From NCBI RefSeq assembly GCF_964204865.1, contig NC_135263.1:10895426-10959425 (forward strand): 64,000 bases of DNA, given 5' to 3'. Source of the DNA: Styela clava. Its lineage: Eukaryota; Chordata; Ascidiacea; Stolidobranchia; Styelidae. A program made the position numbers and the translations under genes. Below, in pieces: positions 15,926-53,818 of the stretch. How positions within the stretch are numbered: the first letter of the stretch is position 1; each line of letters opens with the position of its first letter. The notes under the pieces are model-generated. The model was not told the DNA's origin. It searched no databases and saw only the letters and a list, made by a program, of their open reading frames with translations.

Positions 15926-18900
15926 TCATTGATTCCAATTCCATTTGCTTTCCATTTTTGGTGATTTAATTGGACTTGTAAATTCAAGTGAGTGATCACC
16001 AACACGTTTAGTACTTGGATCATTTAAGCATTGTTTTCGAGAACTTCTGCGAGAAGTCGATGAAGTTGCCGCTGAATCGTCAACTTGTAGAGATGATGGT
16101 GGAATGGTTGGTGATTTTGGCAAGTCAAAACTTGCGGAAAATGACAACGGCTGAATAAAACAAAAATGTCAGCGGTTGATGTCAATTTAGGTAGTTTGGA
16201 GCAGTAAAAGTATCACAATATAAAATTTTGGCAGCATCTATATTTTGTTTATGAAATTACAATTAGCTATTAAAGTTCTGATTAATAATGCGTGCAGTTG
16301 TAGCTATGCTAGGTCTCTCATCCTGTTACCAGTCAAGATTCAATATGTAAATAGCTACCACAATAAATAATTGAAATGCATTGGTATGGTTTGCCAGTAG
16401 GTATCGTCCAATACTGAAACCTTGTCAAACAAAGTTAAAGATAATAACAAAAGTTTTTTAGATAATGATTCGTACACAGATACTGCTTCATTTAAAGTTA
16501 TTTTCGTTCATATGAACGCTTTATCATTAGTAAGATATGAATCGAATATCATTGGCTACTTGTAACTATAAAAACACCACACCCTATTTTACCTTTCCGG
16601 AATTATTTCTCTTTAAAATTGCAATTCTTGATATTGCATCTTTTGTTTTTTGATTTCCATGGTAATGAGCCGATGTATCACTGCTAACACTAATGCTTCG
16701 AGCTGAATTTGAAATATACAAGAGTCATGAAACGCACAAGGTACATGAATGACAGCGATTAACATGTTAGACTCAACTGTGTTAGCATCGCAAATTACCA
16801 AACCGAAAAGCGTGAATATGAGTCGTAAAAAATGCTAAATTAATCGTTGAAAGAATATATAGGCCTAACTGGCTAAACCCTCACAAAAGAATCTCAAACA
16901 ATTTTCTCATTCTTCTATTAAATTTCATGTTATTAATTCCCACGATAGTGACCCAAAGCCTCTGACAAAATCCAGTCAGATAAATGTAAATGAAAAGGCT
17001 GATAAGTCAATAATCCCTCATCAATAAAATAAAAAGTTACATCAATAGAAAGTGCTTCAAATTTCTGGGGAGACCATCAACAAAAATATTTACCATGGCA
17101 TGTTGTCTGCTTCCAATTAGTTCCCATGACATCATCAGGTGACACAAGTTGCAGCATCGGACTGGCAGCTCTAAAATCATATGTAGCGTTAATGAATTGA
17201 TGGATATGAGGCTACAATTTCGAATTAGCAAGTTACAAATTTGTCAATAACATAAAATGTTTTATATATATCCCCACAACTGCGAATTACAATTTCTTCT
17301 ATGCCGTTTGTACATTGAAACACTGAATCTGCTATTGAAATTGAACAGTGTTCCAAGCATACTCCTGAGACAAGTCAGATGATACTTCTCATAAATTTCA
17401 ACCAAAACAGAAAAGATAGAGACACCAGATAATGATTTACCTACCTTCCATCTACTACGCATCTGATTGCTTCTTTCTTTGGAGTAACATTTGAATTTCT
17501 CTTCTGAGGACTAGGCTGCAATTTTCTCAGTGAGAGAGGACTCGGAGATTTGCTTTGAAAATTTTACACAAAAAAAAACGAATTTATTATTTACATAAAC
17601 ATAAATCTAGCATAATGAGAGAGTCACAGAGTACCTAAAACATCATGTTATTTGAAACCATTTGCAAACAATCCAAAAAATACTAATGTCATGTCCACAC
17701 ATTTGGAGATGTTACTGATTCATGTGGTAAATCAAGCCGACCATATCTATTTGTAGAAGGATGTCCAACAATAGTAGTTCAAGCAACTGCGCTCATATAA
17801 GGCCTCCCCCCATTCAAATCCACACATCTTGAGCGATAAACCAAACGACTCTATTATATTGAATATTTACCATTTGACTGGTTGAAACTGCGATAACTCT
17901 CCACTATCTTGAGCACCAATTGGATCGATAGGCCGTAATGCTGAGAAGCGTGATCCGCTTAAAAGAAATGTTCGACTTGGTGCTGAACTTGGACGAGTGA
18001 AAATATCTCGATCACTTTGAGATAATTTTGTAGTTGTTATTCTTGAACTTCCAGCTTCGATTACCGATGATGAAACTAGTAAATGATAAGCAAAGTACGA
18101 ATATACATCATTGCATTGGTACAATACACATATTTTAGAATGATCACGATTTATCCTTAAGAGGAAACCTGATAATATTCTAAATCTTCTGGTTCCCAGT
18201 CCCAAGTCTGTTAAGTATTTAAAACTTGAGCATAAGTGAGAGACCAATAACTGAAGAAATAAAAAAAATAGTTGCCACTTACCTTCACGTCTTAATGATG
18301 GAACTTGCTTCTTGTGAATATTTTGATCAGATTGATAATGTCCACTACTTAATATTGGGTTTGATGACATTTCATTTAATTCATTTGAACCAAATAACAA
18401 GTTCTCATCATTTCTCAACACTGATTGTGGTCGAAGAAATCTAAGCTCATCATGACTTCTACTTGAATCTATGAAATATATCCAAAAATAGTTTTAACCT
18501 TTGTAACCTATAATTATGTTGTTGTCATTTTAATTATGAACACGTGCTATTTGCCCTGGGCTGTGGATTTGGGAAAAAACTTAAGACTGACACAAAACTT
18601 TACTAAAAAGACAACCGGTGCACTTCCAAACCCACGTTGACAAAAAGTTTGATTTTGATTCTAGTTCTCCACTTGATCTTACTTGGGTTTTAGTCAAATA
18701 CCGCAAATCTGATCATCAGCACCATTGCAAGTGAGAAACTATTGCAACTTGGGAAAGTTAAAGTTGGGATAAATTAGGATCACTTATTATTTATATATAT
18801 GAGAACAACTTCTGACGGGCCAGGCTGATGTTTGTAAAGGTATTACAGTATTGAATTTTCCATAATTTTCCTGAAAATTAAGCTATAAACCAGTGGTTCC

Positions 18901-21900
18901 CAACCCTTCATGGCTCGTGACACTCGTTCACAACATCAAAAAATTTAAAAGTCTATTATTGATTTACCACTTTTTATGGTATATAAAAACAAACCAAGGC
19001 CAAAAGTCGAAGGGGTTTAATATACAACCAATTACCGTACTTCGAATTCGCAGAGCACCAAACACCAAAGTATTTATGTTGTTAATTTTATTACGATCAT
19101 ACAATTCATGAATAAGAAAGTGAAAACGCCCTGTATCAGCTATGAATGAAACTACAAAAATGGGAACAAGAACAGGAAATTTTTTTCTGAAGGGAAAAGT
19201 ATGCAAATCGAATCTCATTATAATTAATTTGACGCATATAGCATTGAGGCCCTCCGGCTGGGATCCACTGATGGAAATATCTGCCTCCTCTCAACACTGT
19301 TTATCATATTTTTACTTCAAAATAAACGATAATTTTCTCATTTAAAGCAATAAGGCTAAGAGTATGCTCCACCAATCATCAATATCCAGCTCAATGCAAC
19401 ATCACTATTTTTACCTCGTTCATGTTCAACGGATTGAATGCTATCTTCATTATGCAACATCATCATAATTTCATCACCACAGCTGCTTCCAGTGTTTTCT
19501 TCCAAAAGCTTTAAGTCAAACGTTTCACCTCTGCTTCCTGAAAAGCAAGCAAAAGACACAATATGAGGTATGGTTTTCTTACATTAAATAGAAAATATGA
19601 CAGAGTGAATCACAATTATTCTTAATAGATCATGATGGGTTATATTGAAATATTGACAACCAAATTCTATTTTGAAACAAGTATTGCTCCTTAATGGATG
19701 TCATAACAAGTTGATGATCTTTTTTCTGGCAAGTGCATAAATGTAAATATGATTCGATGGCTTGTCCTGATTCCGACACAACTATAAAAGTGGTTTAGGT
19801 AAATCTATGAATTCAAGTTCACCGAAAAATCGATTTTTCAGCCAAAAGCAACTAACACTCCGCTAAGTAATAATGCCAAGCTATTGATGTTGCTTAACAC
19901 ATCACCGATCAAGTTAGCATTCTCGGCCTCTATGAACAATATAAAAATGAATTGGGAATTACTAATATACCTGTCAGCATATTGTCATCAAAAGTTAATT
20001 TTCTGCTGAATGAATGGATTTGTCCTGGTGCTGGTGAGCTTGATGATCTTGTGATAGGATGAAGCAAGTTATCCTAAAACAGCAAAGCATGATGAATAAA
20101 TTGGGATTTACGAGGAAAATAGGGATGACGAGTCAGAGTCAAATCCTTCATGTTGGGAGTTGAAAATTCAGACTTCTAATCATGATAACACAAGTTAAAA
20201 ATTCCAAAAAAGGGCTCCCAACAGACAATTAAAGAATGCCTGCATATGGCAAATTTTTTGCTGTGAAATACGTTTTTCTCAGAGTTCGGAGCCGGAGTCA
20301 AAATTTTCTCATTCACATGAAGCAGAGGACAAGATTAATAGTCAAAATACTTGTTAACAAGGAATCAATTTTTAAATGGCTCGGAATTCGAAGTCTGGTA
20401 TACATTTTTCAATTTCACACCCCTGATAGAATCTCAATTCACCTGAATTTGTTCAAGTTTCTCTTTGTAATCAGGACTCTCCACAGGTGGCATTGTATGT
20501 GCAGTAAAACTTCTGACTCTAGAATCGTGTTCTCTAATGGGCAGATGTTGTTGTTGTTGTTGAATTTCTTGTGAAGTATTTTCAGGTATTGAAGGTAAGT
20601 TTTCAATTTGCACTTTAGTTATATTTGTCTCCTCTGAAATAATTGATTGCATATTCTGCGGAGTTCCAAGATTCAATCTACTGAATTTCGTCGATGGTGT
20701 AAAAGGACTTTTGGTGTTTTCCAGTTGGCTGAGAAATAAACTTTGATCGACAGAATTTTCATTCAACGTTACATTAAAAGCTTGAGAAACTAAATCATCT
20801 GGCAAGATGTTTTCAATTGTGTATGTGTCAGCTGAATCCGTAACATCTGTCCCAGTAGGTGGACACTGAAAATCACTTATATTCAGATCAGTACCAGTAT
20901 AATCATGTCCAGACAAATACACAAAACTAGGGTCTATGGTACTATCTGTAGGTTTGTTTCCAATATCTTTTAATGTAACCACTTCGGTCTCTGATTGTTG
21001 TTTGCCTTGAAATGCACTGCAGGAACAAGTCCTTAATTTCTCTTGCAAACTTTCTGTGAATGTGTCACTCTTTTCCAATGCCTTGTTTAATTGTGCTATC
21101 TGTTTCTCATAAGTTTCTATCCTTGATTCAAGTGTGGCCACAGTTAGACGTCCAAACCTAAACAAGCGTGAATATTTAATTGAATATGCTTTAAATAATG
21201 TACATATGAATCAATAATAGTAGTCAATGACTAGAAAAAACCCCAATTGGAAATAGTGCTAATAGTTGAAAATATTGACTCCCTCACTTGATAATGATAA
21301 ACCTAAAATTCCAACTTCAAAAACTTTGAAATTGAAACCAGATTCTGATAAGTTTGTAAATATTATTTAGACATTGCCACACGTATAAATGCACAAGAAT
21401 AAATGCATGAATATACTCACTTCATTGGAGATCTCGTTAGAAGCTCTTCTTTCACTGATGTATTTTGTCTCTTGAGATCATCATAATCTTTAACAAGCTT
21501 TTCATTTGTCTGTGAACAGTTTAGTATTGAAAGTTTTGGAAAGACGATACTATCCACATATGAAATAGCAAATACTAATTACACATAAATTTATTTATTT
21601 GGTGTCTGATGAAAACCTTACAATTTCATGTAAATATATTCGAATATCAGATCTATGATAAAATTAGCCGAAATTGAAAACTTGGAACATTGAATATTAC
21701 TGAATCTTGAATATATTTACTGTAAATGTCCTATACATTTATTCTGTTCAGCAATGATACAAATTTTCGCAACCAAGTTTTAACTATCTACATTTTTTAC
21801 TATTTAACCTTTCTTAATTGTATGTTTTCTTCTTTCATATGCTCAAAAGTTTTGGTTGCTTCCTGTAGATTTTTTGCCATTTCAAGCATAGAATCTAAAT

Positions 21901-24900
21901 CTTGCATGTTTCCACATCTCGAACATTTCTTCTTCGTCTTGATATTGACACCGGCTGAATTTTTTTGTTCTTCTTCTGATAATTTTGTTCTCAGGTCATC
22001 ATTAGAATGTTTGAGACAAGCAACCTCTCTTTGAAGTTCACTTATTTCATCCTTTCAAATTAGAAAATGTCAGTATCTAATACCTTGCAAGTTGCCACAA
22101 GAAGATAAAATATGCCAGGTACAAAAAAGAAAAATACAGAGGAAAAATGATTGGGAAGCATTTCAGACAAGTAAGAATGATATGAAATATTAAATAAAAG
22201 TCTTGGAAGTTTGATCTAGAAGAGGCAGATCTTAGGTAAGGCAGAAGGTCATGTGAGGTCAATCACCCCAATACGCATGGCTGTTGAAACCTTAGCACAA
22301 TTAAAGAAAAGTGTACTAAACGCACAGTGGAGAGTTACAGCGAAACAACTAAAACAATCTAAAATCTTTCATTGGCCGATTTCAACGGCAATTCAATGTA
22401 ACACAGTAACACAATGTTGATTATTTTACTGTGTGTCACTATAAAACCAAACTTTTACCATTTACAAGACCCTTAGTGAATAACAAAAGCAGAGTATAAC
22501 ATATTATCATCATTTCTATTGTATTTAATTTTAGCATCTAACATTCATTGGACATTAAACCCCCAAAAAATTTAATTTTCAGATATGATTGGTATTTTAT
22601 AAAATAGGAAGAGTATAGGACTAACAAACATACCCTGGGGTATGCCACAAATAAAACAATAACTAAATAAAAATCTGTTGTTTTGACTTATACAATGCAG
22701 ACACATAGACTCATAGGTAAACATAGTGAAGAAAGTAGCCTTGGAAACTTTGAGAGATTCTCAACTAGGAAAAAAAATAACCTTATATCAATAAGTCACA
22801 GACTGATCAACCAATTGTTGGATTGTGACTTAAGCCAAACCTTAAGGCAAATCTCTCAAATTTTCCAACAATATTTTATCGAGCATGTATTACTATCATG
22901 CCTTGCATGATGCTTCTTCTGCTATATCGTGAATTAGACGAGGTGTGTGCAACCTGGGGCCAGATACAAATAAATGGATGAAACTGCAGGCCGCAAATTT
23001 ATTCAACATTGGCTTTCTATTAATTGCAGGCACAAAAAAAGTTTCTTTTGTAATTATCTTATGGCATTATTAGGGGACCTTGCAGAAATGAGAGATGTAT
23101 AAATTTCTGAAGAAAACTGCTATTCAAATTTATTGTTACACCAACTTCAAGCGAATTCAGTGAAATATTTGCGGCTGTTTTCTTTTCCCAATCACATTTT
23201 TTCAAATTTGCTTTAATGGAAATGGGTTGCACACCCCTGGATTATATAAATAAGCTAAATTAATCACAAAAGTTTACTGATAATATTTATCCTGTCTGTC
23301 AAAATTATGTCTCAAGTAAGTGCATTCACCTTTGCGAACTCTTCAAATTTCATTTACTATATGAAATGCCAGATTTAAAAAAAATAAAAGATACTGTCTT
23401 TCACTCACTTTGTTTTGATTTCAATGAATTTATTTTGCAAAAAAATTCCCTTTCTCTATGTAAAGTTCCAAGTAATCGAGCCAAAAAATTAAATACTATT
23501 TTGAAAATGTTCAATAATTTCTAAGACTTTCAAACATGTTCATTTTCATAGCAAGCTTAGAATTACAATTAGTGTTCAATGTCCATGTCCAAGATTTCCC
23601 TACCAGTGGGAAATACCAGAAAAATCACACGCTAGTGCTTTTCTTATTTGCATCGAGCCTAAGATATTACTGAGAATATGATGTCAATCAGCAAGGTGCG
23701 ATAAAAATTGAAAACAAGAGAGCTACGCCCAAATATATGGACACGTCTGTTCGCAGTACAGTACGATTTACCGTACCATCAGATCACAGTCTACAAATAT
23801 ATTCACACCAAGCGAAGCAGTACAGTAGGACAAAAATAGCGTCCGATGTCCGGAGAATGTTTAATGACGTCATAGCAAACAAAAACAAATCTCACAGAGC
23901 TAATAGAAATATTTAAAATGAATAAAAGTAATAGCCTTTTGGGGAAAAATTTTATCTTCAATCACTGAAAATTTCAAAGCAATTGGTCCAGTATTCGAAG
24001 AGAAAAGCGTTTTTTTAATATTTCCACTAGGTGTGTTATTATTTGTCAAACAACAAGAACAACATAATATTGAAACGATCGTTACGTCCACTACGTGTCC
24101 AATAACAGAAAAGTTACGAGACTGAATTGAACAAAATATTCATGCTTTTGTATCAAATATAACATCAATAATTTCTTTCAAGTTAATCAAAATTATGGTA
24201 CATAGTTTATATGTGTATGTGGATCAATTTCTAGCTTATGGTATGACTGACAAAGGTGCAATTTTAAATATTTGCTGTAACATAAAGTTTTGTATATATG
24301 AAAGTGACTGGGTCTGAATGAAGTGAGTTTATCTGTCTAAAACTGTACAGAGTTGCAGTCAAATGGTTCACAGTGTTTATACCTTTGGGCCTGCGACAGA
24401 CTTGTATATCTATTTCCCTGCTATTCAATTGTCATATTATGAAAGCAAAATTAATATGTGTTAGTGACCACAATCATCGGTTAGCGTCGTGTATGTAAGA
24501 ATGTTATAAAGTTGAAAATAATCATATAGGATCAACACAAGTGAAGCTGCGAGATTGCATAACATTCATTTAATAGCATCAATCAATGTTGGATCACAAT
24601 ACATAACCTGAAATAAAATAACTTAAAATCAAGTCTCAGGTACCTCATAGTCTCTGAAAAGCAATTCCATCCGTGCTCGTCTCATATGCTTGGTAGTTCT
24701 TGGTGATCTGATTTCTTGACTCTGTGACTGGGGAACTCCGCCTGAAAAAATTTAAAAAAATTATAAAATGAATATAATATAACCAACAAGAAAAATAACA
24801 AAAAATCAGAGGCCTATAGGAGCGGCAAATGCTCCACTGAAATAAGACTTGTTATCAACATTTTTATGAAAAAATGTAATAATAATACTACCGATTCCAA

Positions 24901-26029
24901 TGTTCTTACCAATAATTTTTCGAATTGGACTCTGTGGAGTTATATCTACTCTGCATGTTGGACATTGTTTGTTTCTCTCCAACCAAACTTCCATACACAA
25001 ACTGCAGAAAACATGTTGGTTTGGACATGTCACTGGTTCTTTAACCTAAAAACGTGAAGCAGGTTGGTTTTTACATACTGACGATATTCCTCTAAATATG
25101 AGGCCAGGTATTCAACTGAGGGTAAATTCGACTTGCATTGGGGAAAACAATCAAGACGATACATAACCAAATGTAGCTGATAACCATATACAGACATAGT
25201 AGATTACAATGTTATTGGCAACATCCTATGTCGTATATTAGATGTCATTAAATTATCTTTTTACAAAGACCATTTAATACCCTTGTCATGCTTGTGTAAC
25301 TTTTTTATATTTCACATACAAGACGAAAGGAATAGACGGACTACACAATTCGGGCAGTAAGTTTTTCTTTTAAAATTTGTCAAGGGATAAACGAGAGAAC
25401 AAAGGTTGAGAATCCTTCTTGATATAAGGGCTTGATTCTCACAGATCGCATTATTTTTATACCAGCTGCCATGTTCTTTAAGGTTTGGTATCAGCAAATC
25501 ATGGCTTGGCTGATGTATTATTTATTGATAAAGCAGAGCAATGATGTTATCTTTTTAATGATAAGGTCTCCGGGCATTGGTTTTCATTCAGTCATTAGAA
25601 ATTGGCATTTGAATTATATTCAAACCATCAATTACTTCAGAATTGTTTTTCTTGCAACTCATCCCAAATAAACTAAAGTGATTAGCAAAGCAGGATCACA
25701 ATGCTAGAAGCTAATTTCTCTAAAATAGGACCATTATACATGATTTTTATTTAGAAAATCTCAGAAGGTAAATTTGTTAAAAAACGTGGATATCATGAAC
25801 AATAAAATCACAGATGCGTTTATTAAAAGGAATTGTTGAATATATAGTGTCAAATAGTAAACAAAATGTCCATTAAGTATTATTTTAGTCGATTCTGTAC
25901 CTTTTCCAAACATATTTGACAAGAAATCGGCAATGTAAAAGAAAGCTTTGTCGACGAAATTTTCCCGCCACCAGACATCTCTCGATCAACGCGATGAATG
26001 AACTCTCGTTTACTACGACGCGATGCCAT
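15926..26029 (-). CDS. OBI1: RING E3 ubiquitin ligase OBI1 (RNF219, ORC ubiquitin ligase 1)
   Basis: Human OBI1 ubiquitylates ORC3/ORC5 and promotes firing of replication origins. Fourteen exons on the minus strand join in frame to about 848 residues (human 726): 26029-25901, 25045-24910, 24741-24644, 22051-21809, 21509-21421, 21157-20443, 20073-19971, 19537-19415, 18468-18283, 18075-17871, 17552-17445, 17170-17094, 16702-16593, 16150-15926. A C3HC4 RING uses C37, C40, C50, H54, C57, C60, C71 and C74, followed by IRKIIGG as in OBI1. Exon 4 is a predicted coiled coil with a KKKCSRC insert. Residues 233-264 hold FGRLTVATLESRIETYEKQ and NKALEKSD, which match the OBI1-specific block after the coiled coil. 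The rest is Ser/Thr-rich and probably disordered, ending in basic SP-rich segments. The start is 452 bp from the divergent SLC10A7 gene. Exon 11 could use a second donor 4 bp on. RING and block identity are strong; the tail exons rest on splice phase alone. Confidence 0.9.
18891..19270. mobile_element. hAT-type MITE in an OBI1 intron
   Basis: The left end CAGTGGTTCCCAACCC and the right end (inverse CAGTGGATCCCAGCC) form terminal inverted repeats of about 15 bp with two mismatches, 380 bp apart. The flanking octamers agree at only 4 of 8 positions, so the target duplication is eroded or the limits are off by a base. The short open frames inside have no known domain. It lies between OBI1 exons 8 and 9. 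Confidence 0.55.
22939..23239. mobile_element. hAT-type MITE in OBI1 intron 3
   Basis: The left end (cgaggtgtgtgcaacctggg) and right end (inverse of CAGGGGTGTGCAACCC) form imperfect terminal repeats about 300 bp apart, with an internal aggccgcaaattt block common in hAT MITEs. No clean target duplication remains. It sits in the 2.6-kb OBI1 intron. Confidence 0.5.
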
Positions 26030-26481
26030 CTGACTTGCGACTGTCAACAAAACGAGAGTTCATGACACTTTAATTATGACGTCATACAAATATCAATAAT
26101 CGCATATCAATGACATTTCATAACGTATTATATTTTAAAAATATATATGAGTTCAAAATTCATTTTTTACACTTATTAATTACTTCAGGAATGATGAAAA
26201 TTTTCATATAAATTAAGATTTTATGACAATCCACGCACGGTTTCAATGGTTGAATGATCACGGACTGTTACGTTTACGTTCTGTCAGCTGATTGACGGAG
26301 CGCCGGGCTTGAATGTTTACGTTAAGCATTGACGTGGAATTTCGCCCACGTTTTTATCATTTTTTTTATTTATTCAATGTTTTATTGAGTTTACTTGAGT
26401 ATTTTGCAAAATCTGATGCATTGGTTTAAAACCACTTCAGGACGAAAAGGTGTACCATATCCCTCAGTATCCAGGATTGTG
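26030..26481. promoter_or_regulatory. divergent promoter between OBI1 and SLC10A7
   Basis: The two start codons face away from each other across 452 bp. The interval includes a perfect TGACGTCA and GC-richer patches (for example around 26235-26345) against the AT-rich background. No TATA box is obvious at a suitable distance from either start. Shared use as a bidirectional promoter is an inference from arrangement. Confidence 0.55.
26077..26084. promoter_or_regulatory. CRE/ATF palindrome
   Basis: Perfect TGACGTCA, 48 bp upstream of the OBI1 start codon inside the divergent promoter. The position suits a CREB/ATF site for housekeeping promoters. Function is inferred. Confidence 0.5.
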
Positions 26482-30875
<4,394 letters not shown>

Positions 30876-30971
30876 AGCGTGAAATTTCGATGCAGTTATT
30901 GTGTTTTAACATGTTTTATTTCTTTTATATAGCTTTAATCTTTTTTATTAATTCTGTGCACTTAGCAAATT

Positions 30972-30977
30972 AATAAA
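30972..30977 (+). promoter_or_regulatory. polyadenylation signal of SLC10A7
   Basis: AATAAA about 97 bp after the TGA at 30873-30875. Confidence 0.5.
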
Positions 30978-31980: not shown

Positions 31981-31981
31981 C

Positions 31982-31995: not shown

Positions 31996-32099
31996 GCTAC
32001 CTTGCGTCACGGTTCGTCGATTGCGTTGGATGCTCATTCTTAGGTTTTCCGACTAAAATCGAGCAGGTATTTCGCAGTTTTGAGGCACATAAAATCACA

Positions 32100-38581: not shown

Positions 38582-40195
38582 TTTAAATTCCCTCTTGCAT
38601 TATTAATCAAACCAATTGAACTCTTATCGTTCTCGTCGAGTTGTAATAAGTATTTGCGCACCAATATTATGTAGTGAATCTCTCAAACTAGATAGAACGA
38701 TATATAACCTAAAAACACGCGTTTTAAAAAACTGTCGATTTTAAGTGAAAATTGTATATTTATTTGTGTTTGTCAGAAAATCAACAGATTCATTTTAAAA
38801 CATTTTTTCAAATTTTTTTGTTGTTTTTATATTTTCTAGGTAAACTATTTTCGAGTGGCTCCACAGCCGCCATATTTGTTATGTTGGGTAATACTAATTA
38901 GGTATCATAATAAGCTGAAAAAAATGGGAAAAAATTGAATTAGAAATGTTGAAAACATAAATCAAATATTCAAAAATAATTTTTCGAGTATTTTTTTTCG
39001 AAAAACTCCAAATATATATGAGATCTACTCATCATTATTGCGTCTCTAAATCCATGAAGAAAAGTTTTATACGAAAAAAAATTAGCCTCGGTATAAAAAT
39101 ATGGAAGCGCCAGAACTTTCAGTGAAATTACAATATAAAAACAAAACAGTATTCTGTTCAGTATTCAGTATAACCTTGAAAGTTTATGTAGAATTTGATA
39201 AAAATTCGTTCGCCACGATTTCATAAAACTAGAAACAATAATTTATGCAATTGACGAATCAATTCGGCGGTTCAGAAAGGAGCAACAGTATTATTTTCGA
39301 AAAACTCACTCACTCAGCCTAATTACCGCTGCTGTTTGTAAAATACTTTATATAAGTTTCAGACATGACTTAAACAGAATTTTGTACAAAGTTTTGATAC
39401 AATAAATTTTGCCGCTAGATGTCAATAGTGAATTCGATACCTATCGTCCAGCAAATTTATTCTTCATCGGAGAAATATGTGCCTCAGATTGATTCAAAAA
39501 TCAACATCTTGTTATTTGTTTCTTTATGTTACTCCAGGAAGCTGGCAGGACTTAACTAACTGCGATTTTCATTACAGTTTACACACAACTTGGCGCTTTT
39601 GAATCCTTTTATTCCTCCAACGTCAGAAATTTTGATTTAATTTAATAAAGGAATTTAATCCTCCAATGAGCAGAGTCTGTTACAACAAGCTCTGATAAGC
39701 ACTGAAAATTCAATCAAATTTTAATCTCGAGCTCCCTGTTACATAATTTGAAATAAATTTTTATTTGAAATGTGAAAATTGAATAAGTATATTACATCAG
39801 TCAAGGCAACTGAGAGAATCAAAATATCAATCGCCGTTTTATCAATGTTTTTTTTTTTTTTTCATTTTGAATATGGTGAACATTACTTTAGATTAGACTA
39901 TGTTTATGCAAACATTCATGCAAATCAAGCACTCAAAAAGCAAGCACTTACTCATAAAAATATTGGAAATTTTCAATATATATCAGTATACTACATAACA
40001 TACTCTCCCATAGCCACAAGAATAGTCTTAATTATCTTCTTTCTAAACCCAAAAAAGATAATATAATAACATTATATTGCTGATACTCTGTCAGCATATC
40101 AGAAATTTGAACTAAAAATTGGTGAAAAAGAAAATTACTATTGAAAGCATAATCGACGGAATAAAAACCGCGCTTAAAGTAAATCTCTACATACA

Positions 40196-40372
40196 GACCA
40201 CGCCAGTTTTTCCGAATACATGTAGGCTATTTGTCAATAAAATCAAGTAGTTGAAATACATCGCTTCGCCTAGACTTAGATGAATTGGTTCCATCGTGAA
40301 AAATCCATTAAGTTCTTCTAAAACCCAAGGGTCGAAGGTGTTTGGTAATGGCGTGACTGTAGAAGAGAGTAA
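40196..40372 (-). CDS. unassigned candidate exon
   Basis: On the minus strand a good acceptor (ctctcttctacag) is followed by a frame reading TPLPNTFDPWVLEELNGFF, then SLGEAMYFNYLILLTNSLHVF, ending at a GTATGT donor. The composition and splice signals are exon-like, but I recognise no domain. A minus-strand ATG at 41595 (MRHWQTSSENDTEI) could supply a first exon in the right phase. Confidence 0.22.
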
Positions 40373-43300
40373 ATAAAATTTATAAGAAAATGCATCATCG
40401 ATAACTTTTAAATTCAACATAGGATTTGTATTTCACACAACAATGATTGTATTTTTTCAACGTATTTTTCTGAATTTATTCGAGTTTTTTTTTAATCGTT
40501 ATTATATAAAGAATCAATGTTTCTTTATATATAACGAGCCATAAAAGTGATGTCAAGGGTCAACAGTCAAAGTTGAATGTCAGCTGTATTGCAGTGAAGA
40601 CACAGTGTCTATTTCAGGAAGCTGCTTTTTGTAATTCTTGTTGTCAAGCGAGGACCACATCTAAATCCAACCTTTAGCGCCTTAAGTTATATATACATCG
40701 TGCTTGCATGTGAATAAGAAAGTAAACTTAGTGCTCTACTCTCGGGGCCTTTTGGGGGATTTTATTGATAAATCATTTTGGGATCGTGAATAATTTATGA
40801 TTTTGCAACTTACTATAACTTTTGCTCCAAAAGTTCGTCGCAAGCGTTAAAAGTCGAAATCAACTTTTTCTCTAATTCATAAATCATTTTTTCGTGCATT
40901 CATTTTCATCGTGTATAGTGATGTAATGTTGGCAAGTACTGAACGATTGTATTGTTAATCCAAATATAAATCATCTTGTGTATTTCGATTATCATTCAAA
41001 GGATGTAGTGGTTCTGCATTTGAATCTATGTTGCTACCGTGTTTCCCCGAAAATAAGACCTAGCCTGAATTTTAAAAACGATTTTAATATAAGCCCTCTC
41101 TTTCAAATAATACCAAGTCAATAACGAGAATTTTTTTTGTCTAGTGGATAGCAAAAAAATTGTCCTACACGTTTTAAATGATTAATAATCTATGTTTTGC
41201 AGTTATTTTGAATAAAAACGTGTAAAAAGATTTTTGAAAATTCCGCAATTGTCAACTTTGTAATTTTTTTTTTTGATAAATGTAAATATACCAAATTCTT
41301 TGCTAATAGTAATAAAACACATGGCAGATGAGTAAAATACAATCATAAGATTGTAATGCAAGGCCAGAGTATGTATTTTGCACGTTAATATTTGCAATCA
41401 CAAAAAGAAAGCCAATATATTGGCTAATAAAATAATATATTAATGAAACCAGTAACCGTATCCTTTTGATATCCTACCACTTAGCCTTTCTTATCATTGA
41501 ATAAAAGGTATAATTGTAAAAATATCATCATAGAATATTTAGACATTTAAACGTATTTCGGTATCATTTTCAGAACTCGTCTGCCAGTGTCGCATCTCCA
41601 GCTTTGAATTTGAAATTTAGTTCCAGGCACCTGATTGGTTAGTCACTACATTTAAAATCTGGGCTACCACGTGAGCATATATCAAAAAATACGCAACACT
41701 TTCTCGGTACCGCATATATAATTTTAATTAGTCTTGCTTGGTAAAATATTGCTTTAGTTCGAAGTAAATATAAGAAAAAATAAGTTAAATTTCATCTATA
41801 TTTTCACTGATCTAAATAATAGGTCATGTCATTGTTTACTTCTGACCTAGAAAAACTAATCAAAAATTCATTTTGTCGAGATCATAGAAGACTTTAAAAA
41901 TAAACAAATTACTTTTCACTAAGAAATAACTGACACGATAAACATTCTAGATAACGAAAAACATGTTATATACCTATCTAGCACCTATCTATTCAACAAT
42001 ACAACCAAAACATAGTATTCTCTTATTTATCTAATCATCGGTGAGAGTACTTCGTTCGGACAAAAAGACCTTAATAATTAATTACGATTTGAAACATTAA
42101 TTGAGGTTTTAATATTAATGAAATATCTAATGGGAAGACAGCGATGAAATTGACATGAAATCGTGTTTATTTCAAAGGTTGAAATTGATATTGGTTGTTC
42201 ATTATTCACGAACTTATTTCAATAATTGATTCAAATCCCTAAAAACATTTTCCATCTACCACCTTGCATTTTGGATTTAAAGTTTGGATGAAAAAATTAA
42301 AACAAAATGATCAGCTTTTGCAAATGACGGAAGCAAAACTTACATAGGTTTATGTTAACAACGTTAAAACACACACATTCATTTGAGACACAGTATAGTA
42401 TTTACTTGCATATTTAGGTCTAAAATCATAATGTTAGTTTACCCAAAACATATCTGAGAATTCTTTGAGGTGTTTCATATTAACATTTCAATCAAAACTA
42501 TTTTTTGAAAGCACTGATAGAAAATAAGAAGCATATTACAAGGTGGACTTATGTTTTTGTGGTCAATATTGGTAAAAAATCCACTTGCCAGATTTATTTC
42601 TTGTAAATATCGCAAAATTTGAATTTAAGCATGTTGTTTGATCTAGGTTTTTATGCTAATTCCATAACATTGAAACGTTGTTTGGGGTTGTCGCGTCTTA
42701 CTAGTTCTGTAGGTATGAGGCGGAAATTCTGCTTTTATGCATAAAAATTAGGCTGTTTAATATTTATTGAAGTTGAAATGGCACCGTGCATTTAAAATGA
42801 GCGAATTCGGTACGTACAACTAAATATTTTATACATGAATACGCATATGGTAGACTGCCCCGTCCCATGTGACCCATTTGATAATTCAGTCAACGAATTT
42901 ATTTCTGACAAGCATGGGCCGTAAATTATAAACTTAATTTAAATATTTAACATACTTGATTATGCATGACACAAAACAAATTGTCCACCTGGGGAATCGG
43001 ACCCACATTAAAATTACAACACAGTATGTGGTATCGAAGGCGAAAATAATGAATAAGAAATAAGACAGCATGCATGGTATAGCACATATACAAAGAATCC
43101 AATATTTTACTGATAAAAAATTAAAGGGGCCCATCCCCCATGGAATGCAAAATTCAGACGTAGAGCTAGAATATGAAATGTGCAACTAAATATTTAAATA
43201 CACGACGCCATCCTGCATATTGCATTAAAAAGGACCAATTCACCAGTCGGATTTTTATTTGGTTCTAGTGCTTGATGAAGAAACCAAGTATAAATGATAT

Positions 43301-46300
43301 ATTATCAAGTTTATATATTTGGATGTGAACTCATGTTTGAATCGCTTTAAAAAAAAGAAGAATGTAATTGACGCTGGCAAAGGAGTAAACGATTACTGAA
43401 ATGGAATATATATAACTTTAATAATATCAAAAAAAAATTCGGATCTACAATGCGGGCAAAATAATGTATAGATAATTTTTACAAACGTTGATAATGGGCG
43501 ACCTGTTGGAATACAGCCATGAAAAAATTTATTACAGTGGAATATATGCTGAAGAGGGATACGTACTGAAAGCGTGCTATTGAAATTGCTACAAAAGAAA
43601 TGCATAGCAATATGTTCAGTAGGGGAGGTATGTGGATGTACTGTTTTTTATTTTATTTAAGAATATATCCATTTCTACTGATAACGTCGTCTCCATATTT
43701 CAAAAATCGATGGTGTAAAAACATCATACATATATATAGCATTATTTTGAAGCTTATCAGTCAAAATCACCAAAATGTAAAATCGCTTTGCTTTCCGTGT
43801 TTGTTATTTCTTTGTTTATTCAACAGTCAACCCCAATTAAGTTGCACATATGGATGTCAATGTCTCTTGATGTCAGTTGTTTGGTAAAAAATCGCTCTCG
43901 TGGCGACTGTAAAGACTGCAAAGCGGCATCCGTGGCTTCCCAAAGGGATATACAGATTTGGTAAATCGATGGTAATGGACCTTTGATCGGTTGGAACGGT
44001 AAACAAAAAAAATCGAAACTCGTTATCACAGAAAAGAGTCAACATCAATGGCCAATATGTCGCGAGAGATGCCGCGTTGGTTAGATATGTTATTCCTGTC
44101 TAATTTGCATTTTAAAAGCTAAGTCATCAACAGTCTATATATATCGTGATTTGTTCATGAATATTATTACTCGGGTCACGTAAGGTCAACGACTATTTGT
44201 GATAGAACGAATGCGCATGAAATCTAAATCGTTTTACGGGTTGTTCAACAAACCAAACAATTTTGATATCGATACTTTCGAATTGACTATTGCAAGAAAA
44301 TGCACTACTGACGAATTTCAACTTGACTGTCTTTAACTTAAGTGTAAAAGCCAAATTAGTCGCGTTGCGCACAATGTTTGATATTAAATAGCGGGTACTG
44401 TCACGTGACATTACCCTCCGGCTATTTGTCATGTGCAGCTAAATAATCAAAACAAATAATGTAGTAGCTCCCAAAGTTTAGGTATGCAGGAAACGCGGAA
44501 TGAATCAATCAACTGTTTGGCGACTGAAATAACCTATATTTTTTGTAATTTTGTCAAACACAATCTAAAGAAAATTTTGGGTCAAGCTTCAGTCGGATTC
44601 GGATACCCGTCCTGCGCGTCTCGCCAATATCATAAATAAACAGACTCTCTTTCCAATTCGAGTACGACGCGGCAAAAATCACCTCAGTCTTGTTTGTGGT
44701 CTCGGAAATCGCCACCAACAAGGATGAAGAAGCAAATTGCCGGTATATTTTGTTATTGAACCAATAAACAGTTCAAAGTAGCAACTGCCCCGTCATTATT
44801 ATCCAATTCAATGAATGAATATAACCACCAATCAGACTTCACGTCACGAATCAGTTACCCAGGCAAGTATTCAGAACAAATCCTTCGCTATTTAAATGTT
44901 TCATGAAAGAGACACCCCAATCCCAATAATTGAATAACAAGATACGTGTCGCAAGAAAAGCGTATCTAAAAAGTCTTTCTTTAAACACAGACCACGCATG
45001 GCAATCAACAGCCGATCTGAATTGAATGAAACTTTATTATGCGAATTTGTTATAACGATCAGCAAAATTACCGGGTAGTACATATCGTACAAAGGTAAAA
45101 TTCCAATATTATTAATACCAGGCTTACAAGTCAAGCAGATATATTTTGTCCATATAATTGCAACCTTCAATTCAATTAAAGGATAAAAAGACAATGTAAT
45201 GGTGTAGCAATAACGTAATATGTAACCTTTTTGATGGGGGTCGAAATCCAGTAGAAAACGCGTGGGGCGAATGATGATTAAAGACGTTCGCGTGTTATTG
45301 GGCACCAATTACTTGTAGTTATGTCCCCAAGCTTCTCATTATGGATTTGTTTACCCTCTTCTCCCCATTTAGGGATATTTTCGTGATATTGTGAAATGAA
45401 TTAAATTGTAATGTCATAAAAAAGTAAAATTACACAGTATATATATGAAAGAAGAAAAATGTGATTTTTTAATGGAAAAGGTTGTATTATCCTAGTACTT
45501 TATATGTTTCATCTAATGCCCCGTTGATCTTGTAGTGCAAATATTACCAAAATTGTACAGAATCTGGATATATAATGCATTTTTATATCACCAGAAAAGC
45601 GCCTGTTGAAAAGTGAATCAGATAATCAGTATATAGTAAAAATATGCCAGATAGTCGTATATTGTTACCGACTCAAAAACACCGAATTTGTTTGGAATAC
45701 CATAATCATTTCGGGTTTGCGCACACGACTAAAAAGAAGCAGATGTGAAGGATTAGAATGAAACGCAAACGCCCTCTTCAATGTATTCATTCCTCAATGT
45801 ATTCACGATCAAGATTAGTAAAGAGTTTTAAGCCGGTTCAAGTCGGACTTGATTCTAAAAACATCGAATCCGATTTTATAAAATTGATTCATGTTTTCCA
45901 AGTAATTGTTAACAAAAACAGTGCATCTACTTTGGACATGAAAAATGAATCCTTAACTTTTTGATTACCCTAATTGAAGTATCTTACAGTAACGTTATTC
46001 AACACATTCATGGTCTCAATACAAATATAGTTTTAAAACAATAAAAGTTGTCAACTTGTATAATTATACACATTATATGGTATGTAGGAATTCGAAATTC
46101 CTTGGTCACAGGACAATTTTTGATCTCATAATGTGCTCAGCCAAATACGCATTTGACGACCTAATGATAGATTAGTCACGGTACCAGACACGCGCCTGTT
46201 GTGTATCGGGTGGATGTTGGAGTATGTAATAAAGAAACAAGGAGACGAAAGTAGGGTGAGGCAAAATTGATCGATTAATCCACAGCCTACATGCATAGCC

Positions 46301-49002
46301 AATTTTTCGTTTTAGAAATTGTGCAGTGTTTTTTATATAGAAAGTTTTGATTCACATTACACATATGGGGTTGTGACAGTAGTCTCTGAACTGCATAGGC
46401 TTTCTACACAACAGTACGCAATATTTGAAAGTTACAAACAGTGAACGGCCATTGTGCTGAAATCGTTTCTTGTTGATTTAGTATATTGTGACCATAAAAT
46501 CTTGCATGGATTGATGATATCAAGCCGTTGCCCCTTTTGTAATGATATGATTACGTCATCCCCCTGGTGAAATTGGCAGCAACCATTACCGAATTTCGTT
46601 GCATTAAGTAGCGGCTGACTGCACGAGATCGATGCTAATGTTTTTTCTTTTCTTCCCACATCTAGACTGACGATCCAATGTGACACCACGGAAAAGCACA
46701 GTCAGGAACACAATCTAGCGACAAAATCTTTGTGACAGAAGCTTTTAAAAACAAAATATTGAAATGCTAACTTGGATAAACAACGTTACAATTCAGCAAG
46801 CGTGATGTTTCATGAAAACAGCTTCATGCTGTACCACGCAGTCATACATCCCCGTCTGAAACAAAATGGCGACACTAGACATGCAAGAAATCACCTCAAG
46901 CGTAAAGGTTGACGATAACGGGTCTCGATGTCATGAAAAAAAGAACTCACCTCGGGTCCATGCTAATAATTTGAGCTTCAAACGAGACTGTGCCCCGCCG
47001 CGAAATTTGAGCCTGGCTCCGGAAAAAGCCTGCCTTCCTTTAGCTAGAGCTAGTCTATCTATCCATTCCCGGATAAATAAGTAATGAGGACTCGGCATAA
47101 ATCTTCTGAATATTTCATACGTTTTCGTCGGCCCAGGACCTTCCTCCCAACGTCATCCAATCGTCCCCACCCGACAGGATAATAGGGAAAGGACAAAAGT
47201 AATGCAGAAATATACAGACACTTCATGAATAAATCACACGAACGGTTAATTTTAAAGACCCGGCTGAGTACGTGTGAATTTGCGATATGCCTTTGAATAT
47301 TCATGACCGGGGTCTTGTTACAAAGGTAAACCATGAGATACGGCTGTTCCGGCACTTAAGTTGATTAGAAACTCTTGAATTTTTCATTTAGTTGTCCGAA
47401 TTTAGGCTTTCGTCAGTATGTAAGTTGCCTCGTATGACATTTTGACCGCCCAAAATTGCTATTTCACGATATCAATCGTTGAGAGAATATGAAAAATATT
47501 TCACTCAGTAATGTGTAATGCGTGTCAGGTGCTCCTAACAATTTGGCGCCAGGAAATATCTATTATTCAACAGTAAACATTCACCACGCCATTCGAATGA
47601 TGCATTCTCGTTATGTTATGCAAGAAACAATATTTTATGGCACAACCAAAAAGCTGGTGATAACCATTTTAGGAGTGTGATATAAGTTAAAATATTTGTG
47701 ATTCAATGTCATTTAAAATAAATGAATAAAAAGTAAATGCAAAAAGTTTGGCACTATTATGATGGGAGTAAAGAAGCCTTGCCATGCCTCGGGACTTCTC
47801 CTTATTTGATAGTTTTACCTGAAAGGTACATGCGACGACAACTTGGTTGGTTACTTGCTTTCACGTAAGCAAGGTTTTCTGTCGACGTTTGGTTCTAAAC
47901 TAAAAAGTTATTCAACAATGTCTTTATCGACCTGACTAGAAGTTAATGAATGGTGTCGTTTCAAATCCTGTTGTAATATATTGAGCTAAACTCATTGCAA
48001 AAATATATATTAGGGTTAGTCTGATCCAATTTTTATAAGTTTGTTGCGGTATTTTAGTTCACAGCGAAAAGGAAAAAAATATTGGCGTATACAGGTACAC
48101 CGGGGGAATGCGAATGTTGCGATCGAAATGTAACGACCGAATGTCATCTGGCGCACATCGTATAACGACGCTAATTGTCGGGCAAATCTGATGGGCGTGA
48201 AATTTCTCGTCTAAGAACAAATGGTCATCAAAAAAAGATTTTTTTGAGAGAAATTACGAAAGACGGTGCTTCAAAGGGCACCCAACCCACGACTTGGGGA
48301 AATAATATTGTACCGAGATAACAAATAGACTGTAGTTGATTCAGATCCGATCTTATCTGAAAATTGTAAGCATCACGTAAAAGCTCCGATTTCAACAGCG
48401 GTTCGTTCGCTCGGCAACTGTGCGTCAGCTTGAAGAGGCGGCAGTCAACTGCTGGTGTATGGGCTGCTGCCATGTGACCCGCCGGCAGAATGCCCTCGGG
48501 CCCCGATTCGGGCTATGGTGCGTTCGCCAGAAGGTCTATATATCGTAATTTTGATCTTTACTTGTGTCTACATTTTGGCATCATAAAGAAATCTAGTTGT
48601 AAATGACATTGGGCCAGCAAAAACAAAAATATTTAGCAATAATTCAAAGGTAATCTTATACCAATAAATACCAATGAACTAAAACACGTCAAATTCATTC
48701 CATCATCATTAAACTATTGTTTTCGCTAGAGCAAAAATTCAGAATTCAAATTTGAAATTCTACCTGTCTAGTTTCGCTGTAGCAGAATAGCGTTTTTTCA
48801 ACCTGATTTCTCACTTTTCTCGTTGCCAGCAGTACGTCATCACAAGCCCAAAAAAAATCCGTGCTGTTTGGTTTTCAACATTTTATTGTATATTGCCTCG
48901 GCCACGATATTATATTAAAATCACACTCATCATAAATCAAATCGAAAAGGGAATGTAAAACAAGAAATACAAAAATATCGGAACTGTAAAACTAAAATAT
49001 CA

Positions 49003-49026
49003 TAATAATAATAATAACAATAATAA
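49003..49026. repeat. (AAT)n simple repeat
   Basis: Imperfect trinucleotide run of about eight AAT/ATA units downstream of POU4. Confidence 0.8.
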
Positions 49027-50221
49027 AAAGGACTTTAAAAGTGGACCCAGGTAGAAGAAAGGCAAAACATCTCTCAGTTAATGCTGAATGGTCGACTAAA
49101 TAAATCAACATAAATTATTTTGATCCCAGTGAATAATAGAATGGAATACTTTACCATACCATTACCTTCAGCATACTTTTTTTAATTTGCCTCATTAATT
49201 CAAGTGACATGCTCCAATCAATAAATCCAAGATTTTTTGAATTGGACCAAGAGAAGTTTAGCTACAATAAAATGAACCACCGTGCACTACGACTCAAGTC
49301 ACCGTTTGTTTGCAGTACAAAACATTTGGTATATGAATGGATGAAAAGGTAATCGTTGAGAATCAAAATAACAAGAAAAATAAAATAAATAAAATGAAAC
49401 GCAAGAATAACTTTGGATAACAAAAATAAACTTTTGTTTTGGAGATAACCAAAGAGTTAGTTAGTGGTTGAAGTTTGCAGTTTCAAACAGTTTTTCAAGA
49501 TAATCCCAAAACAATAAAAAAAAAGCGTAAAAGCTGGTAAATTTATCGTAAATTAAACGGATCTTAGATTGTTGAAATAGTGTATCACAGGGTTCATCAG
49601 TTATTTTCTTGATTATTTTTTAACATTATAAAAATTGAGCCGCTGATGAAATTCTATTACCTTCTACGCTTGTTCAAAAAACAATTATATATCACAAAAA
49701 CAAATAATAATAAAGACTGTTTGGTATTATCCTAAATACGATTTTGGTTAATGATATTATTAAAAAAAAAATATAAGTCCAATTCGGGCAAATTGAGTCG
49801 TTTTATGTTTGATTGAACTTGCTGTTGTGAATTTATCAAATATTTTTGTGAATCCTTGTTTTGAAAACACGGAGTCAAGAAAGTGCGTCGTAGATATATT
49901 CATAGTCAACGCAATTATTCTTCTTTATTCTCAGGCGGCTTTAATTTTGTCGAGATGTGGCAACGGTTAAACCCAGTTTTATCGTTTTTTAGTTCGCTCA
50001 CTCAGTGACTAAGTAACTTGCTGTTCATGAACCTTCATGGTATAACCGCCAAATAGAGCGACTATTCCGAACAGCTATCGATCGCTGGCAATGACGTTGC
50101 CTTGTACCAAGCAACACGAAGTTGACAGCCTGTGTTTTGCTGACGCATTCCAGTCGTTTGAACTTTTCTTTATAAAAAGTTACATCATGTTTTCCTACAA
50201 AATGAAAAGATTTTTTGAATT

Positions 50222-53200
50222 TCAGTACTAACAAAAACACAAAGAAAGTTTTAAGTTTATATCAGGGAATCAACCCGACTTTTTTTGTATAGGTAGCTGA
50301 TATTCAGCAAAATGTAGACGAAACTCAACCATTAATTGGGAGCATAACCCCATATTTGTTATTTTAAGGTGCTCAGAAATGATATGAATAAAATAAATAT
50401 ATATAATATTTGGAAATTTCAAATTACCATTTATCTTTAAAATATACCGCGAAACAAAAGTGTTACTCACCCCATTGAATGCAGAGAACTTCATTCGCTT
50501 TTGTTTTTGCCTCTGATTGCAAAACCAAACTCGGACGACATTCTTTTTTAAATCCAATTTGTCGGCGATTGCGGCAATTTTTTCTGACGACGGTCTTGGC
50601 TGAAAATGAAAAATGAAGCGTTATATACGTGTGATATAACAGTAGAAGCTTCGTAATATCCTTTGTACAATAACGTTCGCTCAAACAATATCGAACCGAT
50701 ATTGTATATTCAAATGACAAATTTATAAAAATATGCGTTTTAAAATAAAATTGTTTCATGTAAAGGCCAAGAAAGATTTAGCAACAAGCGAGTTGCCTTG
50801 TTTGACACAAAAATGGATGATTCCGAAGCGCTATTAGTGATATATATATATGTTAAAAAAATCAAAAATGGCGGAATTTAGAATCTAATATTTACATTAA
50901 AATGATTAGAAACATGACAGAAAATGTCTCAAAATGGTGGAATACAAACATTATTATTGTATGGCAAACAAACCTGCAAAGAAAAATATGCTTCAAGTGA
51001 TCTTTTTTCCGGGGCCGCAATTGAAGTACGTTTGCGTTTCTTTTCAGCTAAACCCGATTCTTCCATTTTTCTGCGATATTCGGCTTCAGCTTGCTCAAGC
51101 CAAGTCATTAAAATTGGCTTCAACGCAACCATGTTGTTATGACTCAGGGTTAATGACTCAAACCTGAAAGAAGGAAAAATTTGTTTACATTGTTTGTTAC
51201 ATTTTCATTTCGATATATATATCGTTTCAACTGACTTTGGAATGACTTACCTACAAATTGTGCTTTGGCTTAATGACCCAACTCCAGGTAACTTCAATTT
51301 TGCGAGTGCTTGTCCAACATCACATTGTGTTACTCCTAATTTGATTCTCCTTTGCTTGAATCTGTTTGTAATGTTATAGAAATTATGTTAGAGACGAAGG
51401 TATTAAAACTATGTATATTGCGAAAAGGGATTCAAACCACAATAAAAACAGAGGTATAAGTTTGACATTTTTTAGAATATATCACAGAATATTTTGAAAC
51501 TCAAATTCATTCTGCTATTTTCATACAACATGTAGATACTAACCGTTCAGCGAAAGCTTCAAGTTCACGAGGATCTGTGTCATAGTCGCCTACCGGTAGC
51601 GATGGGTGTGTGATAGGCGGGGAACAAGCTTTAAAAACAAAGAAATCTGTTATGCATAACTAGTAAAACTCAATATATATATATATTTCGATTGTTAACG
51701 TATGAAAAATTCAAGCAACTTACCTCCGTTATGTTGTTGGGAGTGCATATCAGAAGAGGCTGATGAAGCAGGAGTAGCCATGGCCACACCGGGATGAAAC
51801 GCCATTGAAGACGGTGGTTGTGTGTTAAAACCTGGCAACCCGCTTTCTGATGTCGGCATCATTCCTGATGACGCGCTGAAGGAAGGTGGTTGGTAGGTCG
51901 AAAACGAAGAACTATCAAAAGAAATATAAAAAATCACAAAATGTATATATTAAAAAATAAGAACTTTAGAGAGTCATATATGTACTTACCAATGAGATGG
52001 ATTGCTCAGTTGCTCCATCAAATCTGCGCCAGAATCTGTGATGCTGAGAGGACCTTGTGTGAGTGGACCTTGGTGCATAGTGTGAAGCGGAGATGGGTGG
52101 TGTATTCCGGGTGGAGGTGGCATAGCTCCATATACTAAATAAAAAACGTTTGTCAGTTGTTGTTATCTCTACCTGTGCTATTCACTTTACACGTATCTCA
52201 GACAAGAACATTATGCGCATACCCATGAACTAGTTAATCGCAGAATGAATTTATAGCGAATACTTGTTACGATAATGAATGAAAGTTTGTTATACCTGGA
52301 GGCGGGTGTACAGATCCAGGTCCCATGCCCATTCCTGCGTGGTGTGCTTGTGGTGGCATATGGTGTGGCGGTGGTGCGCCCATTGGGTAATAACCTGACA
52401 CAGTCGATTCTGGTTTGAATTGATTTTTTCCGGGGTAGTCTACAGCAGCCAGTGCTTCAGCTCTAGCTAGGAATGTTTCATCAAACCCGGCAAATAAATT
52501 TCCCTAGAAAAAAAAACATTTCAAATTAAATAACGTGGGAACATTGTGTGATATAATTGCGAAAGTTGTCAAGCTAATTTAAGAGAAAAGAGGGGTTGTT
52601 AGAGCTTTGTATGTTAATTGGCATATTCATAGTGACCATGCAATAATTCATACATCCTCTTTTTCCGTATGGAACATGCCCTTCGCTTAATTCGATTCGT
52701 TACGCTCTAATATGTTTCCGTAACAATGGAGCTCAAAGCGGACTTTTTAAAACAGGCCGAGGACGCCATTTTCCGTAATATCGAAGCTCGCTCGATCTGG
52801 AGGCGTGAAATTGCGTACACAAAACGACCCGCTTCAACATATGTCTCGAACATTATTTCTATATTATAAGGAAAGACAAAATACGATCACATTAGATATT
52901 ATTGAATTAGGGAAATCGCATTCTAGGGTATTTGGTTGTAACTATCGACTGATACTTAGTCTATTTGAACAATCCAACAAAATTTTCTAATTATATTTCT
53001 TACTGGGATTAAACTTGTAAAAGTGGGGTTATCTTGCCAAAAAAAAACGATTTTTCACTGAAAAAGCCAAGCGCGATTAAACTATGGCTCGCAACTGCTT
53101 TCGCAACTATATTTTGCAAAATATCCCAGTTTTTGATGCGCGCCTTATCGACAACAATTTCGCAGCAAGATGGAACTATATGGGAACTAGTTGAGCACAA

Positions 53201-53818
53201 CCTTATACTGTAAAATATATTTATTTTAAGACAAAATATAACTCAGTATAATTTATACGAAATAAAATATTGTTAAATTATAACAGGAACTACATTTTGT
53301 CGTCTTTAGTTCTCTCTGCCAGTAATTAGCCAATACACCATGTTTGATTTGGAAATGAAAAATCGATTGTCATTTTAAGTCCCATTTGATGCACCCGTGA
53401 GTTTTCCCAAAGCGTAGTCATCCGAGCTTAAAATCGATGTTTCGCTTTTATAAAGGAATCATTACCACATCAAAGACATGCTCGCGAGGTTCTTTATAAT
53501 TAACCGAAACTAAATGGTTATTTGCATAAAGAGATGACACTAAATCCTCAACAAGTGGACAAAACAATTTAAAACTTTGCTCAAAAAGTCCAGTGAAAGT
53601 TAAGAATAAAATTGTAAGACAACACTCACGGAATATGTTACTGGTGAAGGCATACAGTGACGTCTCATGGCATCGGCCGCATTGTGAAGGGGCGCGTATT
53701 TTTGCTCCGGTGGAGATCCCGTGCTTGGCGGTGATCCAGCGATTGAAGACGCTGAGAGACCACCCATTGGGGACCCAGGTCTATGATGATGATGGTGTGT
53801 CAGCATGTTTGTGAACAT
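50222..53818 (-). CDS. POU4: class IV POU homeodomain transcription factor (POU4/Brn3)
   Basis: POU4 factors specify sensory and other neurons. Eight exons join in frame on the minus strand: 53818-53630, 52503-52296, 52134-51990, 51911-51724, 51628-51544, 51361-51251, 51163-50974, 50599-50471, giving 415 residues (human POU4F1 419, POU4F2 409). The POU-IV box is at 38-60 (PEQKYAPLH, then AMRRHC), followed by [19 protein letters not shown]. The POU-specific domain (about 258-335) includes [39 protein letters not shown] and [18 protein letters not shown]. The homeodomain (about 350-409) has [20 protein letters not shown] and [11 protein letters not shown] with the POU-class Cys at helix-3 position 50. 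After NG a GTGAGT donor is used, I infer, to reach a tiny last exon TAC TGA at 50227-50222 behind a strong acceptor (tttgtgtttttgttag). Otherwise the frame runs on to a stop at 50270. The start at MFTNMLTH is the most likely; His, Pro and Gly-rich stretches fill the linker. Confidence 0.94.

What the first reader, a model, noticed from the sequence alone, without database searches (positions are those of the whole stretch)
15926..53818. Ancestral POU4 neighbourhood: OBI1, SLC10A7, TTC29 and POU4 side by side
Seen here: four neighbouring genes in the order OBI1(-), SLC10A7(+), TTC29(+), POU4(-). Established, from my knowledge of the human map: POU4F1 is adjacent to OBI1 on 13q31.1, and POU4F2 lies between SLC10A7 and TTC29 on 4q31.22. 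One invertebrate locus thus carries the partners of two vertebrate POU4 paralogues. Inference: this is the pre-duplication arrangement, split by differential loss after the vertebrate genome duplications, and it survived because POU4 enhancers may sit in or beyond these bystander genes.
Basis: partly seen in the sequence, partly recalled or inferred. Interest (0 to 1): 0.85.

Follow-up and report, generated by a model that had tools for sequence, protein, structure and literature searches.

The report
Ancient gene neighbourhood around POU4
In this invertebrate genome the nerve-cell control gene POU4 still sits beside three unrelated genes that today flank two different POU4 copies in humans, which points to an old neighbourhood that was split after the vertebrate genome duplications, perhaps held together by POU4 switches lying among its neighbours.

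Summary
The gene order OBI1(-), SLC10A7(+), TTC29(+), POU4(-) is real. POU4 has POU and homeodomain hits and reads as class IV by recalled motifs. TTC29 matches solved TTC29 chains at 1e-53. SLC10A7 matches PF13593 at 1.9e-70. OBI1 has a RING plus coiled coil that reads like human RNF219, from recall. OBI1 and SLC10A7 are single-copy; TTC29 copy number was not obtained. Random placement on the same chromosome would bring all three within 40 kb of POU4 about 6 times in 1e8, so shared ancestry is far likelier than chance. Published data put Pou4f2 enhancers in and beyond Ttc29 and a POU4F1 enhancer in the OBI1 promoter. The bystander explanation thus has outside support on both vertebrate halves, but none from this sequence: POU4-motif scans were not enriched. 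The order is not collinear with human as recalled; what seems kept is the tail-to-tail POU4-TTC29 pair. No other animal genome could be searched, so the decisive comparison is undone, and the phylum is unknown. Verdict: observation confirmed, interpretation partly supported; an ancient block of a known kind, not found in the open papers searched.

The parts
15926..20433 (-). probable C-terminal exons of OBI1 (not proven)
   Evidence: open frames; splicing not modelled
20434..26029 (-). OBI1 (RNF219) core: RING exons (26029-25901, 25045-about 24930), coiled-coil exons 22051-21809, 21509-21421, 21157-20434
   Evidence: RING Pfam hit; single locus; name by recalled human sequence; the junction after the RING exon scored badly
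26030..26481 (.). head-to-head OBI1/SLC10A7 gap, about 450 bases, with a TGACGTCA palindrome at 26077-26084
26482..30550 (+). SLC10A7, 8 exons
32433..37772 (+). TTC29, 9 exons modelled (two junctions not resolved; the modelled exon 34814-35057 overruns)
37773..50269 (.). gap of about 12.5 kb between the tail-to-tail TTC29 and POU4; candidate POU4 regulatory space (inference)
   Evidence: the coding-segment scan shows one 21-residue segment here; length
50270..53818 (-). POU4 (Brn3/acj6/unc-86 class), 8 exons; end of last exon uncertain
53819..62508 (.). upstream gap of POU4, about 8.7 kb
62509..64000 (+). start of a HIPK-like kinase (next gene)
   Evidence: Pfam Pkinase 3e-21; HIPK by recall
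6837..10875 (+). RagC/D-type GTPase (gene on the other side; ends approximate)
   Evidence: PF04670 E 1.6e-63; exons

Best explanation
This is an ancestral POU4 neighbourhood. Before the vertebrate duplications one chromosome carried OBI1, SLC10A7, TTC29 and POU4 together. After the duplications POU4 was kept in several copies while each bystander survived in one place: OBI1 by POU4F1, SLC10A7 and TTC29 by POU4F2. The likely reason for the long cohesion is that POU4 control elements lie in or beyond the bystanders, so breaks between them harm POU4 expression (a genomic regulatory block). Shown here: the identities and the linkage. From papers: putative enhancers in the neighbours in two vertebrate POU4 loci. 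Inferred: homology of the linkage, differential loss, and the regulatory cause in this animal.
For: Gene identities. OBI1 and SLC10A7 single-copy. Chance arithmetic. Eleven putative Pou4f2 enhancers over about 350 kb in the retina, many within or beyond Ttc29, following Pou4f2 and not Ttc29. A BRN3A/POU4F1 enhancer in the RNF219/OBI1 promoter, 55.4 kb upstream. The same chromosome carries one of the two Sprouty-domain genes, at C18:14.9 Mb; SPRY1, 2 and 4 lie on human 4q, 13q and 5q like the POU4 genes (recalled), which fits a shared ancestral chromosome but is one gene only.
Against: No enhancer evidence in this genome; POU4 motif counts not enriched (GCATAATTAAT 3 against 5.6 expected; ATWATTWAT 29 against 21.7, reached by 7 of 100 shuffles). 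Human order differs. I recognised no further human POU4 neighbour in a crude scan of 100 kb either side. No other animal genome compared, no gene trees.
Confidence: 0.65

Rival explanations
1. Passive retention: the linkage is ancestral but kept only because this lineage and vertebrates rearrange slowly; no regulatory constraint acts.
For: No regulatory signal found in the window; the wider flanks hold genes such as SUZ12 and V-ATPase c that I do not know as POU4 partners.
Against: The vertebrate POU4F1 and POU4F2 loci each kept a neighbour from this block, and putative enhancers lie in those neighbours.
Confidence: 0.25
2. The block is held by the OBI1-SLC10A7 shared promoter and other local constraints, with POU4 an incidental neighbour.
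For: Start codons only about 450 bases apart, with a CRE-type palindrome between.
Against: In human OBI1 and SLC10A7 are on different chromosomes (recalled) while each stays beside a POU4 gene.
Confidence: 0.08
3. Coincidence or secondary re-association.
For: None found.
Against: Probability about 1e-6 to 1e-11 under uniform placement.
Confidence: 0.02

Closest known systems
Genomic regulatory blocks (developmental gene plus bystander genes)
   Same: A developmental transcription factor with unrelated neighbours in long-lasting linkage, which fits the description in abstracts listed (Synorth, Ancora).
   Different: Conserved non-coding elements and their target have not been shown here; the block is compact, about 38 kb.
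Pou4f2-Ttc29 locus of the mouse retina (PMC10018358, one passage seen)
   Same: TTC29 on the 3' side of POU4.
   Different: Putative enhancers spread over about 350 kb there; none known here; SLC10A7 lies on the other side of POU4F2 in human (recalled).
Human POU4F1-OBI1 locus (PMC8778714, passages seen)
   Same: OBI1 is a POU4 neighbour.
   Different: OBI1 lies upstream of POU4F1 there, on the 3' side here.
Ancient metazoan microsyntenies (Irimia and others 2012, recalled; not held)
   Same: Same kind of deep local linkage.
   Different: Whether the POU4 block is in their lists could not be checked.

Membership tests
POU4 class | POU-specific domain plus POU homeodomain | tested here: met
   PF00157 4.3e-30 and PF00046 1.6e-17
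POU4 class | class-IV N-terminal box and class-IV type homeodomain | tested here: inconclusive
   Motifs read by eye against recalled human POU4F1; no class-IV profile or tree was used, and the PDB hits are other POU classes
TTC29 | best match to TTC29 over other TPR proteins | tested here: met
   1.1e-53 to named TTC29 chains against 1.3e-11 for the next protein
SLC10A7 | SBF_like family (PF13593) rather than SBF | tested here: met
   PF13593 1.9e-70 against PF01758 3.2e-14; that SLC10A7 belongs to PF13593 is recalled; no chain named SLC10A7 among the 9 PDB hits
OBI1/RNF219 | N-terminal C3HC4 RING | tested here: met
   zf-C3HC4_2 7.1e-10
OBI1/RNF219 | OBI1-specific coiled-coil sequence | tested here: inconclusive
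   No OBI1 model among Pfam or PDB hits; likeness to human is from recall
One-to-one orthology with human neighbours | gene trees | not testable with these tools
   No other animal genome could be searched
Genomic regulatory block | target-gene enhancers in or beyond bystander genes | not tested
   Only motif scans here, not enriched; vertebrate data from papers
Genomic regulatory block | linkage conserved over long times | tested here: inconclusive
   Shared with human as recalled; chance arithmetic; no third genome

The most novel reading that the evidence does not exclude
The four-gene POU4 block may predate the split of cnidarians and bilaterians. The POU loci found in this genome are one POU4, one that reads as POU1 by recalled motifs and one with a single long open frame, which would suit a cnidarian set; if so, one regulatory neighbourhood for sensory-neuron identity has been kept for over half a billion years and its pieces still work at two vertebrate POU4 loci.
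Probability: 0.25. Interest if true: 0.75.

Novelty: new member of a known kind. Interest (0 to 1): 0.55.

Why it matters
POU4 controls mechanosensory cells in Bilateria and in a sea anemone (abstract and passages). If its neighbours have been kept because they carry POU4 switches, the block tells where to look for ancient POU4 enhancers in any animal, and gives a clean case of one regulatory neighbourhood shared out among gene copies after genome duplication.

Tried and rejected
GALNT at the left edge was first thought to be GALNT10 (human 5q33, recalled), which would have widened the block; one 71-residue segment matches an unnumbered GALNT chain and GALNT4 ahead of GALNT10, so this was dropped. 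POU4 motif clusters: not enriched. COX1, to fix the mitochondrial code and the phylum: no match in the assembly. Rfam on the window at gathering thresholds: nothing. Of 10 flank segments, 5 gave Pfam matches at 1e-3 and 5 did not, among them the PGM2-, ACOT9- and atlastin-like ones, so those names are from recall; DCTD, also without a Pfam match, was found in PDB. Planned tests of NDFIP linkage, let-7 and TTC29 copy number did not complete. Paper searches for the block: POU4F2+SLC10A7+TTC29 0 papers; POU4F2+SLC10A7 1, unrelated gene lists; SLC10A7+TTC29 1, a human 4q gene list; others, of which only the top rows were listed.

Full report
The window is bases 10895426-10959425 of contig C18 (20.05 Mb) of a 376.6 Mb genome in 379 contigs. 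Genes with many introns, a POU4 gene and TTC29 make it an animal (inference); its phylum was not established.

Observation. Four genes were modelled by choosing splice sites around open exon cores. POU4 on the minus strand runs from a start codon at 53818 through eight exons; the POU domain and homeodomain are clear, and the N-terminal box and homeodomain read as class IV against recalled human POU4F1. TTC29 on the plus strand matches solved chains named TTC29 at 1e-53 while the next protein, an inner dynein subunit, is at 1e-11; two of its eight junctions were not resolved. SLC10A7 matches PF13593 at 1.9e-70; the one NCBIfam hit, a bacterial pantothenate transporter, is far below its cut-off. 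OBI1 was the weakest claim at first, as its coiled coil found no OBI1 model in Pfam or PDB. A search for cysteine pairs found the two halves of a RING in exons at 25921 and 25006; joined, they give a C3HC4 RING in a context that closely resembles recalled human RNF219. The junction from the RING exon to the coiled coil scored badly in my model. The first Met is at 26029, 452 bases from the SLC10A7 start codon at 26482, so these two are head to head with a TGACGTCA palindrome between (4 in the window against 0.66 expected). OBI1 and SLC10A7 each occur once in the genome. TTC29 copy number was not obtained.

Is it chance? If three single-copy genes were placed at random on the same chromosome, the probability that all fall within 40 kb of POU4 is 6e-8; across the genome 1e-11; allowing any three of six immediate human flanking genes, 1e-6 and 2e-10. 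This assumes uniform placement and human positions that I recall. Papers support part of them: Ttc29 is the neighbour on the 3' side of Pou4f2 (one passage), the RNF219 promoter is 55.4 kb upstream of the BRN3A start (passages), and SLC10A7 and TTC29 stand side by side in a list of genes from human 4q27-q32.2 (passage).

What it is. The simplest account is an old linkage of four genes that was duplicated with the vertebrate genome and thinned out differently in the copies. One further gene fits: of two Sprouty-domain loci in the genome one lies on C18, and by recalled motifs it is the SPRY one and the C2 copy the SPRED one; human SPRY1, 2 and 4 lie on the POU4-bearing chromosomes (recalled). 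One gene of one family tested is weak evidence. The scan of 100 kb on each side, which sees only well-scoring coding segments, showed no other gene that I know as a close human POU4 neighbour; DCTD lies on human 4q35 by recall, far from POU4F2.

Order. Human (recalled): SLC10A7, POU4F2, TTC29, with POU4F2 and TTC29 tail to tail. Here: SLC10A7, TTC29, POU4, with TTC29 and POU4 tail to tail. The direct POU4-TTC29 pair and its orientation are thus the best preserved element; SLC10A7 and OBI1 have moved relative to POU4 in one lineage or the other.

Mechanism. In retina (mouse, by gene symbols and mutants) eleven putative Pou4f2 enhancers spread over about 350 kb, many within or beyond Ttc29, and their activity follows Pou4f2. 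In melanoma cells an element in the OBI1 promoter is annotated as an enhancer of POU4F1 and gains H3K27ac when HDAC2 is knocked down. Two vertebrate POU4 loci therefore carry putative POU4 regulatory DNA in or beyond a partner from this block. I read passages of these papers only, and the evidence in them is chromatin-based. Medaka has an enhancer derived from a ttc29 exon that drives expression like pou4f2, but the paper presents it as arisen anew in teleosts, and the mouse exon was inactive in six transgenic embryos, so it is not ancestral. In this window neither POU4-type motif is significantly enriched: GCATAATTAAT (recalled consensus, one mismatch allowed) 3 against 5.6, ATWATTWAT 29 against 21.7 with 7 of 100 shuffles as high; the 12.5 kb TTC29-POU4 gap holds 7 of the 29. 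This neither supports nor excludes enhancers.

Phylum. The POU search gave six hits at three loci: POU4 here, a single open frame of 494 residues on C1 and an exon-split gene on C4 that reads as POU1 by recall. The tool scores only the best candidates and exon-split genes can be missed, so absence of POU2 and POU6 is not shown. This set would suit a cnidarian (recalled), hence the novel case, at low probability. let-7 was to decide it and did not complete.

Prior art. No paper in the open library holds POU4F2, SLC10A7 and TTC29 together. The main texts of four synteny or genome papers hold no mention of POU4, RNF219 or TTC29; an amphioxus POU paper has no word beginning with 'synten'. Supplements could not be read, and the main catalogue of ancient microsyntenies is not held, so the block may already stand in a table somewhere.

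Score. The finding is real and well chosen, of a known kind, with a direct set of tests. Interest 0.55.

Noticed in passing
26030-26481: OBI1 and SLC10A7 start codons about 450 bases apart, head to head, with a TGACGTCA palindrome; a likely shared promoter.
   Followed up: partly
9922, 23865, 26077, 57338: TGACGTCA occurs 4 times in the window against 0.66 expected; none of 100 shuffles reached 4.
   Followed up: no
50270-50599: The POU4 last-exon frame runs 66 residues past the expected end of the homeodomain tail; an unrecognised splice or an odd tail.
   Followed up: no
L018 (window coordinates 74164-77841) and L013 (window coordinates about -39113 to -33169): BEL/Pao-type retroelement segments (named by eye) on both sides of the block, the right one a long open frame; none recognised between OBI1 and POU4 in the coding-segment scan.
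   Followed up: no
L021-L022 (window coordinates 110985-116195): Two beta-1,3-galactosyltransferase-like copies in tandem, named by eye.
   Followed up: no
C18, length 20054287: If contigs are numbered by size, 18 of at least 20 Mb nearly fill the 376.6 Mb genome, suggesting about 18 chromosomes.
   Followed up: no
34286-34339: 26-base tandem repeat, 2.1 copies, between two modelled TTC29 exons.
   Followed up: no
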